Positions 9,101 to 64,000 of a DNA stretch of 64,000 nucleotides are shown piece by piece. The notes beneath the pieces were generated by a model. The model saw only the letters and a program-made list of their open reading frames with translations. It did no database searches and had not been told where the DNA came from. The number at the start of each line of letters is the position of its first letter. Position 1 is the stretch's first letter. Position numbers and translations under genes: made by a program. This DNA is from Apostichopus japonicus (taxonomy: Eukaryota; Echinodermata; Holothuroidea; Aspidochirotida; Stichopodidae), in NCBI RefSeq assembly GCF_037975245.1, contig NC_092581.1:11683303-11747302 (forward strand), written 5' to 3'.

Positions 9101-12100
9101 TTTTTGAACAACTCCGGCAGTCAGTCGCTTCAGTTGACTTTATAAGCTAGACTTTACTTCTGAAGCCATCTTAGAGCTTGTGGCCCTCTTCTGTTTTATA
9201 TGTTACAGTATTACACAGAGGAATTATAAAGTATTGTATTCCACCTTCTTCCCAGGATCAGCTCACCATCCTCTAAGTCCGAACATGATCTCTCCCAGAG
9301 GTTTGAGGAGGACTGGAGAAGTGGAGGGAGTCAGGCAAGCTATGGGTAATGTGGCAATAGGCCGTCCTCTCACCAAACTGGAACTGCTATCAAGGAGAAA
9401 GTTTGTGCCCGAATTATTGGATGTCGTTAGAAGGTGAACCCTTAATTTCATATTTCCTTGAAAGATTCCAAAATTTTATCGATAAATTATTCTTTAAAAT
9501 GTAACTTTACAAGTAACGTAAGTTTGAAGAGAGAAAGAAAACTCAACAAAGACTGTACTTTTAATGTTGCGAAAACCCTGCGAAGGAAAAAAGTTAGAAT
9601 GCTTGATGTTTTAATCATAGCAGGAAGTTCACGGCCTAAATAGGTGCAGGATAGAACAGAAGCCTCTCATCCCTGTCTAACTCTCATGTGTAAATTCACT
9701 TTGACTTCATTCCTAGCAAAAACCTTGGTCTGTCTTCAGATTGCTTGCTGATTTATTGACTACATTATTTATGTTTTTATCCAAATTTGCTTGTTCCATA
9801 AAAGTAAATCCTATACAGTTTGAACCTAAAACTAGATAGGGTTATTTACAACAGGCAGTTTTTCTGGGAACCAGATGTGGGCGATGGCACACCTCCTGAT
9901 AGTAGTGGTTGTGGTTCAGCGGTTCACTCTGTCTTAGTTTCCTCAAATTATCTTTGTAACATTCTGACATAGAGAGGATGCATTTCTAGTCCAGCTTCAT
10001 ATTAGAAAAAACAAAAACTTAGTCTTTTTAATGTTTTGGAAATTGACGATTCCAATTTCAGATGCGACGAAGAGAGACGTCAAGCCCATCGTCAGTTGGA
10101 ACAGCTTCATTACATGTCCGAGTCTGCCAAGAGACCTGCTCTCAAAAAGGTTGGTAGTTTTCAATATTGGATATTAGGACTCTGGGTGACCTTTCTAACC
10201 TCTGCTCCTCCCTTCCCAGCACTGATCCTTTTACAATTACTCTTCTTTTGTTAAATAGCCATAAGAAGTTTAAACAATAAGAAGCTTGTTGTCCCTCAGT
10301 GTTTTTTCATCCAGGGAACTTTTGTGTCGTCACCCCACTGTACCCATTCATCCCCACCAGTTTCCCCTCCCCTGTCAGCTCCCCCCACTCCTTCCCTATC
10401 TCCCTTACCCCAACCCATTTTCCTACCCTGTTCCCCTACCGTCTTGCCCCTACCTATCTCCCAACCCCTTCCCCATTCCCAATCTGACTTGAATTATTGC
10501 TATATTTTAGCGGTTCAATTGCCACTGTTAGTCTTTATTTCTGTTGAATCTAATACCTTGTTTGTATGTTAGTGATACAACAATTTGACACAATGTGTCT
10601 TCACTTTTACTTGAAGAACAACTGTAGTGGGAACATTTAGCAACATTTCTGCCATCGAAACACTCTTTATTCCAACTGATTTACTTTTGTAACTTTTTCT
10701 AAGAGAAAATGAGTTGAATTTCCTAGGTCGTTTAGTACTCCAATCTAGGCAAAACATCCTAGCTTTTCAGGAGCAACACGAAATGTTGATAGTTCCCTAC
10801 TCAGTTTTGTGGTTATTATTTGCTCACTTAAATGTTACCGTTGAGTAAATTATATGATCTAAGCTTTATCACCAACGATTTCAATGTATTTCAACAATGC
10901 GGAGTAGAGTGAAAAAAGTTTGAATGGCAAGCAGGAAAGCAAATCTAAAATTGAAGGGTTCAAAGTTCTGCAACCTTCTATGTTAATTATCATGTTGTAA
11001 AGGAGTACCCTGACAAGGTTGACAATTCTAGAAAGACACCTTTGGTTGTATTTTGGTCACAGGAGAGCAGCGGGGAATTTTCTGAGAGAATGCTGAGGAA
11101 GAAGAAAAAGTTGAGAAAACTCCAGCACAGTTATGGCACTCGCTCACAGGAAGCTTCTGATAATCCCATCAACGGTGAAGGAGATGAGGTTCGTAAATTG
11201 AGAATGATCAGATCTCACTTTGGTAGTGTCTTCTTTTGGTGGCTTGTTGGAGGGTCTGTGGACAAAGTTGTAAATATTTTCTTTGGATTGGGCAGGGACA
11301 GAGCAGGGGGGGGGCAGAACATTTGGAGTTTCAGTTTGACATTATTTGGAGATGGAAGCAAGCACATTTTATTTCTACTAATTCCAACAGCAATCTTTCT
11401 CTGTATCTTTAGATCTTTTACTGTACTGTGCATGTGGTCTTTACAAGTTTTATTACGTGTACAATATTTGAACTTTCCGTACGGTTGATTTGCTTTCCCT
11501 TGATTTCACTCTTCCTTTTTACTTTTCTTCAAAATTGTTGAGTATTAATTTTCATGCAATCTTATGAATTGCACGCTTTTTGTAGTTCTTTCTAATATTT
11601 AGCACATTAGGTTATTTTCTATAAACTTCATTCAAAGTCCCATGTTCACAGCATTAATAATAATAGTTAAAATATTTATTTGTATGTGTTTAACATCCTA
11701 ACAAACTTTTGCCTTGCCTCCATGCTGCTTTGGACTATATTTAAGCAGAATTAAGAATGCAGAATTCTACGTGGTTGCTACAGAAAATCATGAATGAATT
11801 TGTGCAAAGAGAGATTTAATTGAAAATTTTTACAGTTGAATTAATTATTGGATTTCAGACATTTTGTATTTATTCCTATTCACAGAACAACAGTGTTGTT
11901 TCTTTTAATTGTGTTTGTCTTGCTTGGATCGTAAAATTCCTCACACCACAGTATCGAGAGAATTTCCTTTAATTTACCTTAGTTTGCATACTTTGTACAT
12001 TAATGATTGATTGATTTATTGATTGATAGATGGATTTATTTATGCTTATTTGTTGGTTAGTATATGAGCATGTTAATATTGATTGATTGATTATATATTA

Positions 12101-15100
12101 GCTTGTTTTTTTCCTTCAGATGGTTGATGTAGAGAGGTTGGAGGAGTCCTCAGGGTATGACGTCAACATCAGCGATAACAGTGAAGAGGGGTAAGTACTA
12201 TAGCATAGAGAAGAAGGGTTCTATCTAATATTATTTTATACATTAATATTAATGTGCAAAAGTCACATGAAGGTCAACAATAGTTGTGTGCCCTCTCCTG
12301 TGGTTAAGACAACGAATAGACAAGGAGAGATACTCTGTAATTCTAAATGATTTTTATTTCTCTGTGAGAATTTATGGACACTTTGTGGTAGGAGGGGAAG
12401 TTAAGAACCCCCTTATACCACTGGTGTAGGGAGGGGGCGGAGGTGCAAAAACTGTTTTTGCCCACCCCTGTTGTTGACTAACAAAATTTAACCGCAGTGA
12501 TTAGTTAATCTGTCTTTCTTATTGAAAATGAGCAGTGCAGGATCCTCTCTGTGTGTGCTATGTTATGCTGGGATATTGAAATTATTAGGATCTTGTTCTC
12601 TTAATATCAACTGCTAAATTTCTGATACGACCTAATGATTCGACCTAATGAAGTTCTTGGATAACTCAATACCTTAGGGCAGTGTTTGTGCAACGTTATA
12701 TTATCAGCAGTTTAAGGCAATATTAGGTTTTGCTCCCTCTATCATTTTGATTAGTTGGCTGGAAAATGGATTGTCAGAAATAGCAAGTACATGATTGGCT
12801 TATCAACAAACCACTATGGTCTTAAAGAGTTACAGCATGTATGCAGACCAAGCTCTCTTTGTGACTGGATTTTGCTGAGTTGTGAATGGTTGTGGCTTGT
12901 GTCCAGTGCCGATCAAAATGCGATACATCTGATCACTGCCGGTACTAACCCATTGCGACAACAACTATAACTCTATGCAATCTCTTATGACATTTGTGTG
13001 GGTGCAGATGTCATACCTTCATATTAAACATGATATCTCCACAAGGGAATATTGAATGAATCTCATACTAGGCATACATATGCAGATACACCATATTGAG
13101 TATATGAACCATGTTCATTGATTTTACATGAAGGTTAAAGGTCATTTGAGATCAGCCCAGCAAAACAATGAATTATGTTTGTTATTCTCGTTTATCCGTC
13201 AGTGGTTCCAGCGATTACTCAGACTGGATCGAAGAGGCTGGCATCAACCTCCAGCCACCGAAAAGAAAAGCACAGACAAAGAGAAAGTACAAACGAAAAA
13301 GAGCTCGCAAGAAAAACCCAGAACGAAGCCAAGACCCCCGGAGGACACCGAGAAAGAAAACCAGGAGAGCTCTGAAAAGAAAAGTAAAGTCTTTTTCTTG
13401 TGATAACTAGATTCTCAGAAACTAGTGTTGTAAAATCTGTATTTTGTGTCAAGAAGTCTGACAGTAACCTTCAAGGAAATAAAAGACACACGTCAGACCA
13501 CTTTTTCATGCTTTATTTTGGAAAAAAAGTGCCCACTGTATCAGAAAAGTGACTGCTTGATGTTTTACTTGACCAAGCCTGTAAGGTCACCTCTATATTA
13601 AGGTAAAGTTTGGAGTGGTTGATATAACTGTAACATAACTGTTAATTGATTCTGACATTCTTCTTGCTCCCCTTTCCCCTCTTCGAAAAAGGCTCCAAAG
13701 ATGTTGGTAGTTGATGAACAACCGGTTTCTGAACTTCCAGAGGAGTACAAGCCATCACCTTGGATCACAGATACCAACCCTCGGAGGTCCCCCTATGTAC
13801 CCCAGATGGGTGACGAGGTCATGTATTTTTGGCAAGGTCACAAGGCTTACGTAGAAGCTGTCAAGAGGCATAACGTCTATCACATAGATGGGCGGAAATT
13901 TCCGTGGAACCACCTTGATTTAAAGGTACAATCAACTTCTAGTTTGACTGTAATGGGCTTCCTTCACCTAATTAATTACCTCACACTGCCTTCAGTAACC
14001 TTTAAGCATGAGTCAATTAAGTAAAGACCGTGATTAATCAAAGTAACATCAAATTAGGTTGATTTCTGTTTTAATCCATTCTGTGTATGACTGGCAGCAC
14101 CACTCTTTACCCCCCAAATACATATATTACATTTCCACACCACCCATGACCCTTCACTCACCCATATCCCTGCATCCACCCATATCCCTATTTCACTCAC
14201 CCATATCCCTTCACCCACCCAATTCCCTAAACCCACCCATATTCCTTCATCCTCTCATGACCCTTCACTCACATATACCTCCACCCTCCTATATCCCTTC
14301 ATACACCCATATCTTTCACACACCCATATTCCATCACACACCCCTATTTCACACACCCATATCCCTATTTCACACACCCATATTCCTATTTCACACACCC
14401 ATATCCCTTCTCACACCCCCTAACCCCCAAGACCACTCATGTCCCCCCTCAAGTCACCATGTCTCCTCACAATTGTTCAATGCAGGTGCCTCTGAAAACC
14501 CTAAAGAAGCCTTTTGAGATGATTTTGATCAGCTTTTCACTTTTACTCAATATGCAAATCCCATAAGCTAACCCTATCATCTATAACCTAAGTTTTATCT
14601 CAATATAGGGGCACAGCTTTTGAAATTTGAATAGTTGCTTATCAAGCATGGTTAATAGTAGTATAAAACGTGCAACAGCCTGGGGAACCAAATCTGTGTG
14701 GAGGATTTTAGTTTAATTATTCATTAATTACTCATGAATTCATTAATTATTTGCTCATTGTTACCTTAATTCATTCATAAACATCTAGAAGGGTATATTA
14801 GTATGATAAATTACATTCATACTTTGACAATTAGTCGGTAAGTTTGTGAGAACTGGCAGACGAACTAAAAAAAGAATCTGATTTGGTTTCCTTCCGCATA
14901 TTAGACCGAGGAGTTGATGAAGGTTGTCGGCATCAAGTACCACATCGGTCCACCCACTACGTGTGGACTGAAGCTAGCCTTTATCGACTCAAATACCAGA
15001 AAGCAAACTGGAGGATTTTTCCAACTCAGGTAAACTTACAATCTTCGCTTCAATGCTTATTTATGAACTCATCATATCAGTCTCTTGGATATTTAACACT

Positions 15101-63548: not shown

Positions 63549-64000
63549 CGAGTGATTAGAATTGTTTGGAGATGCAACCACGATGACGAGTAACAATGTC
63601 TCTCTCTGAGCGTGAAGCGGATCAGAAACAGCGTTAATTCGTAGTTTCTGATAATTGATGACCGTTCCTCTGCTCTTCGGAGTTCTGGAGGAGAGAGACA
63701 TATTCAGAGTGGCTGCAAACATAGTAGTGTTATTTTTAATAAACAATGTAAAGAAAAGGTCATCGAAAATACTAACAACACGACAAGTGTCGTACCGGCA
63801 TTATAGTGCTGAAGGCCTTATCGAAATTTTCCTCAACCGCACATGTACGTCACAGGGTGACTTTCAGACACGTGAGGGCTTAGGAATTTTTGCGAAAAGA
63901 TCAAATTCCTTGTCCAAAAGTGCTAGGTTTGATCAGGTTTTACCGAGTCCCAAAGGCAAAATAATGCAATATGCCATACATCAATGGAAAGGTACAAGTG

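What the first reader, a model, noticed from the sequence alone, without database searches (positions are those of the whole stretch)
10628..63998. Half-gene tandem duplication of a PHIP/BRWD gene
A 20-23 kb block holding only exons 14-28 and the 3' flank is repeated downstream in the same orientation, separated by 11 kb. This leaves one WD40 half and two bromodomain halves. All 15 exons in copy 2 keep splice sites and phase. The layout would allow one promoter to make two C-terminal versions, or could be a decaying duplicate. Divergence up to about 7% in exons, different transposon content and a 111-bp exon duplication argue for a real and fairly old event, but retention of a second haplotype by the assembler remains possible in a highly heterozygous species.
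Basis: partly seen in the sequence, partly recalled or inferred. Interest (0 to 1): 0.75.

Follow-up and report, generated by a model that had tools for sequence, protein, structure and literature searches.

The report
Repeated half-copies of a chromatin-reader gene
Next to a complete copy of the chromatin-regulator gene PHIP, this echinoderm carries further copies of only the gene's second half, several still with readable frames, so they may make shortened proteins that read chromatin without the ligase-binding half.

Summary
The duplication is real. Copy 1 is a complete PHIP/BRWD gene; copy 2 repeats exons 14-28 with borders and phases kept. Corrections: the block runs to 38,471 <-> 81,023; copy 2's last exon has a one-base deletion that replaces the tail; the 111-bp exon duplication sits at the edge of a ~10-kb tract of ~4% divergence (about 10% before it), so it looks like the seam of a later replacement by copy-1-like sequence. 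Past the window lie an older third half-gene (exons 16-28, open) and bromodomain-2-only cassettes; no second WD40 half was found. A haplotype artefact is unlikely. Copy 2's frame was protected in exons 14-23: 8 frameshifting indels expected, none net; about 5 stops expected, none seen. Its amino acids seem to evolve loosely (omega 0.55 against 0.12 in copy 1), but neutrality of copy 2 and a single omega for all are both not rejected in exons 16-24. Best reading: a recurrent array of C-half duplicates encoding WD40-less readers, copy 2 perhaps now decaying. Expression is untested.

The parts
1..10149 (+). WD40 / N-terminal half of the complete PHIP-type gene (first exons lie up to ~6.3 kb upstream of the window; the exon 13 end at 10,149 is placed by inspection)
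   Evidence: tblastn exon pieces; genome search with the WD40 half, 7 of 7 matches here; Pfam WD40; N-terminal pieces upstream found with recalled probes; exon 13 region
10628..38471 (+). duplicated block, copy-1 side (exons 14-28, 3' flank and a relic bromodomain-2 exon)
   Evidence: BLAST chain against 44,322-81,023
11063..28348 (+). copy 1 exons 14-28 (15 exons, 871 residues, open to a normal stop)
   Evidence: exon table with AG/GT and phases
24471..34400 (+). low-divergence tract shared with copy 2 (about 4%, windows 1.6-7.6%, against about 10% before and 8-10% after); likely conversion or replacement tract
   Evidence: windowed divergence
38047..38202 (+). R1: lone relic of exon 23 (bromodomain 2), open, AG/GT borders; counterpart of R2 beyond the window
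39632..43281 (-). retrotransposon-like open frames in the spacer (my reading of the frames; no family search was run)
   Evidence: ORF list
44322..64000 (+). duplicated block, copy-2 side (continues to 81,023 in extended coordinates)
44681..59199 (+). copy 2 exons 14-28: all borders and phases kept; 24-nt in-frame deletion in E16; frameshifted tail in E28
55655..55876 (+). 111-bp tandem duplication inside exon 24 of copy 2: first repeat 7, second repeat 3 differences from copy 1; seam at the edge of the low-divergence tract
59060..59131 (+). frameshifted end of exon 28 of copy 2: acidic tail and C-terminal block replaced by a short basic tail and an early stop

Best explanation
This is a genuine array of partial tandem duplications of one PHIP/BRWD gene in an echinoderm. 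SHOWN: one complete gene (WD40, BRWD/PHIP ancillary domain, two bromodomains), followed in the same orientation by a half-copy (exons 14-28, copy 2), bromodomain-2-only cassettes and an older half-copy (exons 16-28, unit 4). No WD40 part was found with any half-copy. Frames and splice borders of the half-copies survived amounts of divergence that would be expected to break neutral DNA. The exon 24-28 end of copy 2 is much closer to copy 1 than the rest, and begins at the 111-bp seam; a frameshift has since hit its last exon. INFERRED: an unequal exchange made copy 2; a later misaligned exchange or conversion replaced its end; the half-genes are transcribed from new starts and make WD40-less readers that can sit on modified nucleosomes but cannot dock CUL4-DDB1, acting as competitors or separate readers; copy 2 is now under weaker constraint and may be decaying.
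For: Frames: E14-E23 of copy 2 carry no net frameshift where one branch at the masked noncoding indel rate predicts 8.0 (P about 3e-4), and no stop where neutral simulation predicts 4.7-5.6 (zero stops in 0.25-0.5% of 400 runs). Unit 4: 13 of 13 identified exons open with fitting phases, where 0.1 neutral substitutions per site would give ~10 stops. Branch omega, E16-E24: copy 1 0.12, copy 2 0.55, unit-4 branch 0.31, with omega=1 rejected for copy 1 (2 delta lnL 9.8) and for the unit-4 branch (71). Domains: BRWD_AD in copy 1, copy 2 and unit 4; bromodomain stretches 2, 3 and 2. Genome searches: WD40-half 7 of 7 matches, C-half 24 of 26 matches on this stretch of C21; the other two are bromodomains elsewhere at 33-39% identity. 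Human protein: RepID/PHIP fragments without WD40 do not bind CUL4 or raise CUL4 on chromatin (PMC6050238, passages); PHIP recruits CRL4 to chromatin (PMC13057301, passages).
Against: In E16-E24 omega=1 is not rejected for copy 2 (2 delta lnL 1.7), a single omega for all three branches is not rejected (3.7, 2 d.f.), and equal omega for copies 1 and 2 is borderline (3.6); over E16-E28 these are 0.5, 6.5 and 6.1. The last exon of copy 2 is frameshifted and its bromodomain 2 carries a 37-residue internal duplication. The second repeat of the seam shares one state with the first repeat and unit 4 against copy 1, so it is not pure copy-1 sequence. Unit 4's bromodomain 1 has Tyr where copies 1 and 2 have Asn (acetyl-lysine role of the position recalled). 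The unit-4 branch also holds the stem before the split, so 0.31 is not a pure unit-4 value. Exon borders of unit 4 were chosen to fit the phases of copy 1. No exon-14/15 equivalent was found for unit 4; no start or promoter is shown for any half-copy; no RNA evidence was available.
Confidence: 0.6

Rival explanations
1. Copy 2 is an unexpressed, decaying partial duplicate, and the downstream pieces are older leftovers; the open frames are luck or the after-effect of past function.
For: omega of copy 2 ~0.55 with neutrality not rejected; frameshift in the last exon; exon-24 duplication; the bromodomain-2 cassettes evolve fast (R2 27 against 3, U3 21 against 6 changes relative to copy 1, 126 columns, human bromodomain 2 as reference).
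Against: No stop and no net frameshift in E14-E23 of copy 2 and open frames in all 13 identified exons of unit 4 are very unlikely if never functional.
Confidence: 0.25
2. The half-copies are alternative 3' modules of one transcription unit: the WD40 exons are spliced in cis (or trans) to copy-1, copy-2 or unit-4 halves.
For: The probable E13 donor (phase 0) fits the E14 acceptor of copy 2; the E15 donor (phase 2) fits the first identified exon (E16) of unit 4, for which no E14/E15 was found; the E22 donor (phase 0) fits E23 of the cassettes. It would explain frame retention without new promoters.
Against: Phases are inherited, so the fit is not independent evidence. The stretch before E14 of copy 2 has lost 12 nt of a pyrimidine-rich run. 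Copy 1 has its own stop and a poly(A)-like motif at 29,459 before the spacer. No RNA data.
Confidence: 0.12
3. Assembly artefact: a second haplotype kept in line with the first.
For: No reads could be examined; echinoderms can be highly heterozygous (recalled).
Against: 11.4% noncoding mismatch before 24.5 kb but about 4% in an internal 10-kb tract; no N in the 144 kb joined; no WD40 half with the second copy; older copies of the same kind downstream; no further copy found on other contigs.
Confidence: 0.03
4. The low-divergence tract (24.5-34.4 kb) comes from a second partial duplication or unequal exchange rather than gene conversion (a rival on this step only, compatible with the main reading).
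For: The seam in exon 24 is misaligned by 111 bp, as an unequal exchange would leave.
Against: No extra copy of that segment shows in the 124 kb compared; an exchange that replaced the old end cannot be told from conversion with these data.
Confidence: 0.4

Closest known systems
PHIP/BRWD family (BRWD1, PHIP = BRWD2 = DCAF14/RepID, BRWD3)
   Same: Copy 1 has the layout: WD40, BRWD/PHIP ancillary domain-like domain (PF25313), two bromodomains; of 6 distinct solved sequences matched by its bromodomain 2 at E 1e-30, 5 are PH-interacting protein (best 3mb3, E 8.6e-43) and 1 is BRWD1.
   Different: Copy 2 and unit 4 have no WD40 half and no longer encode the C-terminal block of copy 1. Copy-1 bromodomain 2 has Asn where human PHIP has Thr (alignment).
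Partial (incomplete) gene duplicates as a class
   Same: Tandem, breakpoint inside the gene, introns kept; a class described in Katju 2012 (PMC3449122, passages read), where partial and chimeric duplicates are common.
   Different: Here the same 3' part has been copied more than once over a long time, frames are kept, and a later replacement tract is visible.
lola / mod(mdg4)-type genes (one 5' part, many alternative 3' exons); named from recall, one search gave only a listing
   Same: Geometry: one 5' module, several homologous 3' modules in a row with fitting phases.
   Different: No evidence of shared transcripts; the modules here are 13-15-exon half-genes with their own stops.
WD40-less PHIP isoform of mammals (recalled; hinted at by the title of Podcheko 2007, seen only as a reference; paper not held)
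   Same: A product without the WD40 part from the same gene family.
   Different: There one gene is said to make both; here separate half-genes are present in DNA.

Membership tests
PHIP/BRWD family (full gene, copy 1) | WD40 repeats in the N-terminal half | tested here: met
PHIP/BRWD family (full gene, copy 1) | BRWD/PHIP ancillary domain and two bromodomains | tested here: met
   PF25313 E 1.9e-30, PF00439 two stretches; PHIP bromodomain-2 structures best hits
PHIP/BRWD family (copy 2, unit 4) | WD40 repeats | tested here: not met
   no second WD40 half found in the genome search or in the 144 kb; the half-copies are relatives, not full members
PHIP/BRWD family (copy 2, unit 4) | ancillary domain and bromodomains | tested here: met
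   PF25313 E 8.6e-30 and 5e-26; bromodomain stretches 3 and 2
CRL4 substrate receptor (DCAF) | binding to DDB1-CUL4 | not testable with these tools
   only the WD40 requirement in the human protein was read
Partial tandem gene duplication | same orientation, breakpoint inside the gene, introns kept, 5' half absent | tested here: met
Processed pseudogene | introns missing | tested here: not met
   14 introns kept in copy 2
Neutral pseudogene (copy 2) | stops and frameshifts at the neutral rate | tested here: not met
   E14-E23: 0 stops, 0 net frameshifts; one frameshift in E28
Neutral pseudogene (copy 2) | omega about 1 | tested here: inconclusive
   0.55, omega=1 not rejected
Retained-haplotype artefact | even, allele-like divergence and a junction at a gap | tested here: not met
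   divergence patchy and up to 14% per window, no N
Retained-haplotype artefact | half read depth, no spanning read | not testable with these tools
   no reads available
Alternative 3'-module gene | shared 5' exons spliced to each 3' module | not testable with these tools
   phases compatible; no RNA data

The most novel reading that the evidence does not exclude
The locus is a modular gene: one WD40 'head' that docks the ubiquitin ligase can be joined to any of several homologous chromatin-reader 'tails' (copy 1, copy 2, unit 4, bromodomain-2 cassettes), while tails started on their own give ligase-free competitors, so the animal tunes which nucleosomes receive CRL4.
Probability: 0.1. Interest if true: 0.8.

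Novelty: new variant of a known kind. Interest (0 to 1): 0.45.

Why it matters
PHIP joins two jobs in one chain: docking the CUL4 ligase (WD40) and reading histone marks (ancillary domain and bromodomains). Both larger half-copies, copy 2 and unit 4, have lost by different lesions the C-terminal block that copy 1 keeps (its conservation in human PHIP is recalled), which hints that this block works together with the WD40 half.

Tried and rejected
Haplotype artefact: judged unlikely (see rivals). Search for exon 14/15 equivalents upstream of unit 4 (85.2-93.57 kb): nothing credible (best E 0.2). A weak match at 44,290 to the start of exon 24 (E 0.089), which would have put the breakpoint inside a relic exon, was judged probable chance after reading the DNA and not used. 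Solved-structure searches with E17-E21 of copy 1, copy 2 and unit 4 gave no match at the strict limits I set (E 1e-40, 1e-40, 1e-30); with copy-1 E17-E20 plus the start of E21 at E 0.01 the only match was a plant auxin response factor, so human PHIP could serve as outside reference only for bromodomain 2. Literature, listings and starts of abstracts only: PHIP+BRWD3+tandem duplication 4 papers; at least 4 of PHIP/tandem/partial duplication/bromodomain/WD40 16 papers, 10 listed; BRWD3+PHIP+echinoderm 0; further searches were for function and analogues. By title and abstract start none of the listed ones is about partial PHIP duplicates; other wordings and papers outside the open library were not covered.

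Rows dropped and results against: four repeat-rich stretches were left out; I asked for 11 of the 13 chain pieces before 24.2 kb, and 27 of 100 noncoding indels lying in low-complexity sequence were left out of the rate. In the codon tests gapped codons and codons split by introns were left out, and in copy 2 the part of E28 after the frameshift; the first repeat of copy-2 E24 was aligned to gaps. 14 of 69 polarised E16-E24 sites were ambiguous. In one search one fine window (33,983-34,133, 47% mismatch) is a global-alignment error across an insertion and was ignored; another (24,621-24,771, 9.9%) goes against a sharp tract edge and is unexplained; three windows inside the tract (28.1, 31.6, 32.3 kb) lie at 5.8-7.6%. 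Two one-base indels about eight bases apart in E21 cancel and were counted as no net frameshift; a two-base coding gap after 24,457 I take for alignment across the seam (not checked).
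Full report
Setting. The window is C21:11,683,303-11,747,302 of a 671.6-Mb assembly in 35 contigs. The mitochondrial COX1 on contig C35 shows the expected conserved residues under NCBI table 9 (AAA=Asn, ATA=Ile) better than under table 5, which points to an echinoderm (judged by eye against recalled COX1). Coordinates above 64,000 continue the window into the fetched neighbours L001-L006.

Observation. Self-comparison shows a same-orientation repeat beginning 10,628 <-> 44,322. 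With the neighbouring DNA the collinear chain runs to 38,471 <-> 81,023, broken in copy 2 by a ~12.7-kb insertion (64,515-77,213). I placed 15 exons (E14-E28) in each copy, copy 1 11,063-28,348 and copy 2 44,681-59,199; 15 of 15 acceptors are AG and 14 of 14 internal donors GT in each, with equal phases. The complete gene also has its WD40 half, with N-terminal pieces down to ~6.3 kb before the window, found with recalled probes. Pfam gives WD40 for the first half and the BRWD/PHIP ancillary domain plus bromodomains for the second halves. Bromodomain 2 of copy 1 matches PH-interacting-protein structures best.

(a) Copy 2's last exon has a one-base deletion near 59,060: the acidic tail and the C-terminal block are replaced by a short basic tail and a stop. 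(b) Divergence is patchy: 7-14% per 700-base window from 10.6 to 24.5 kb, then about 4% (4.3% and 3.9% in the two noncoding summaries; windows 1.6-7.6%) to ~34.4 kb, then 8-10% to 38.5 kb. The tract begins in exon 24, where copy 2 holds a 111-bp tandem duplication. Its first repeat differs from copy 1 at 7 of 111 sites and at two of them agrees with unit 4 alone; its second differs at 3 of 111, one of these being a state shared with the first repeat and unit 4. The simplest reading is that the end of copy 2 was replaced by copy-1-like sequence through a misaligned exchange or conversion, and the duplication is the seam. (c) The array goes on: bromodomain-2-only cassettes (exon 23 alone at 38,047, R1; exons 23-25 at 80,565-82,023, R2; exons 23-25 at 83,252-85,246, U3) and a third half-gene, unit 4, with exons 16-28 at 93,569-106,272. 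No exon 14/15 was found for unit 4.

Genome-wide. The WD40-half query gave 7 matches, all at copy 1. The C-half query gave 26 matches, 24 within this array and two bromodomains elsewhere at 33-39% identity. Of 35 bromodomain matches in the genome, 9 are on C21, all in this array. These searches score only the best candidates and work exon by exon, so 'none found' is not proof of absence.

Is it old and real? No N occurs in the 144 kb joined. Noncoding mismatch is 11.4% (Jukes-Cantor 0.124) in 10.6-24.5 kb, and synonymous divergence 0.151 in E14-E24. Copy 1 has insertions missing from copy 2, for example between 18,971 and 21,398, where copy 2 is nearly continuous (52,618/52,623). A retained haplotype is very unlikely; read depth remains unchecked.

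Has copy 2 been used? Frames: across the E14-E23 span, noncoding DNA has 100 indels in 5,636 aligned bases, 73 of them outside low-complexity sequence and 55 of those not multiples of three. The coding part (1,646 aligned bases) has one 24-nt deletion and two single-base indels about eight bases apart that cancel. One neutral branch (half the divergence) would be expected to have 8.0 frameshifting indels (P of none 3e-4). Neutral simulation expects 4.7-5.6 stops in those exons, with none in 0.25-0.5% of 400 runs; none is present. Amino acids: a three-sequence codon model (527 codons, E16-E24) gives omega 0.12 for copy 1, 0.55 for copy 2 and 0.31 for the unit-4 branch. omega=1 is rejected for copy 1 (2 delta lnL 9.8) and for the unit-4 branch (71), not for copy 2 (1.7). 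Against a real difference between the copies: one omega for all is not rejected there (3.7, 2 d.f.) and equal omega in copies 1 and 2 is borderline (3.6); over E16-E28 (729 codons, converted part included) the same tests give 6.5 and 6.1, and 0.5 for omega=1 in copy 2. Polarised changes in E16-E24: 17 synonymous and 8 replacement in copy 1, 17 and 30 in copy 2, 14 ambiguous. So copy 2 looks like a sequence that kept an open, spliceable frame for most of its life, probably with weaker constraint on residues, and now has a damaged tail.

Unit 4 and cassettes. Unit 4's 13 identified exons read as one open frame to a stop placed just before the C-terminal block; I chose its borders to fit copy 1's phases. 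Even 0.1 substitutions per site of neutral change would give ~10 stops, while dS to copy 1 is 0.82 in E16-E24. Its bromodomain 1 has Tyr where copies 1 and 2 have Asn at the recalled acetyl-lysine position. With human bromodomain 2 as reference, changes relative to copy 1 fall on unit 4 14 against 5, on U3 21 against 6 and on R2 27 against 3 (126 columns): faster, yet R2 and U3 hold no stop in 143 and 141 codons. The nucleotide tree groups R2 with U3 (support 100).

Mechanism. Shown: the anatomy above. From the literature: WD40-less fragments of human PHIP/RepID do not bind CUL4 and do not bring it to chromatin (PMC6050238, passages); PHIP engages nucleosomes through reader domains and recruits CRL4 (PMC13057301, passages). 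Inferred: the half-genes make ligase-free readers that could compete with full PHIP or serve on their own. A possible start for copy 2 is an ATG in the retained intron-13 piece at 44,585, in frame with E14 and not an ATG in copy 1, or the Met inside E14. The alternative, splicing of the WD40 exons onto downstream halves, fits the phases (probable E13 donor phase 0 to copy-2 E14; E15 phase 2 to unit-4 E16), but phases are inherited and prove nothing.

Known or new. Partial duplicates are a recognised common class (PMC3449122, passages). The searches made listed no paper that by title or abstract start concerns partial PHIP/BRWD copies; this covers only the open library and those words. I file it as a new variant of a known kind: a layered array of C-half copies of one reader/ligase-receptor gene. 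Copy 2 and unit 4 are not PHIP family members in the full sense, since the WD40 feature was tested and not met.

Noticed in passing
64,515-77,213 (extended coordinates; L001-L002): A ~12.7-kb insertion in copy 2's 3' flank carries arrays with a ~180-bp offset at 65.66-68.13 kb and an inverted counterpart at 75.42-76.19 kb, like the long repeat ends of a mobile element.
   Followed up: no
15,210-16,273 and 19,634-20,647: Two ~1.05-kb direct repeats (86% alike) in copy-1 introns on either side of exons 19-20, missing from the chain with copy 2: probably two insertions of one element family after the duplication.
   Followed up: partly
39,632-43,281, minus strand: Retrotransposon-like open frames fill much of the spacer between the copies (no family search).
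   Followed up: no
28,316-28,620 and 59,167-59,766: The last ~72-84 bp of the coding end of exon 28 are tandemly repeated just past the stop, over a longer span in copy 2.
   Followed up: no
59,060-59,131: The frameshift turns a GAA-repeat acidic tail into a Lys/Arg-rich tail in copy 2, a charge reversal by one base.
   Followed up: partly
98,149-98,535 (unit 4 exon 21), also unit-4 exons 18 and 24: Synonymous divergence from copy 1 is lower in these exons (0.43-0.51) than in the other exons compared (0.67 to saturated), perhaps exon-limited conversion.
   Followed up: no
copy-1 exon 24, 24,457-24,609: Bromodomain 2 has Asn where human PHIP has Thr (PHIP(2) is called atypical in a title cited), so the atypical state does not hold in this echinoderm.
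   Followed up: partly
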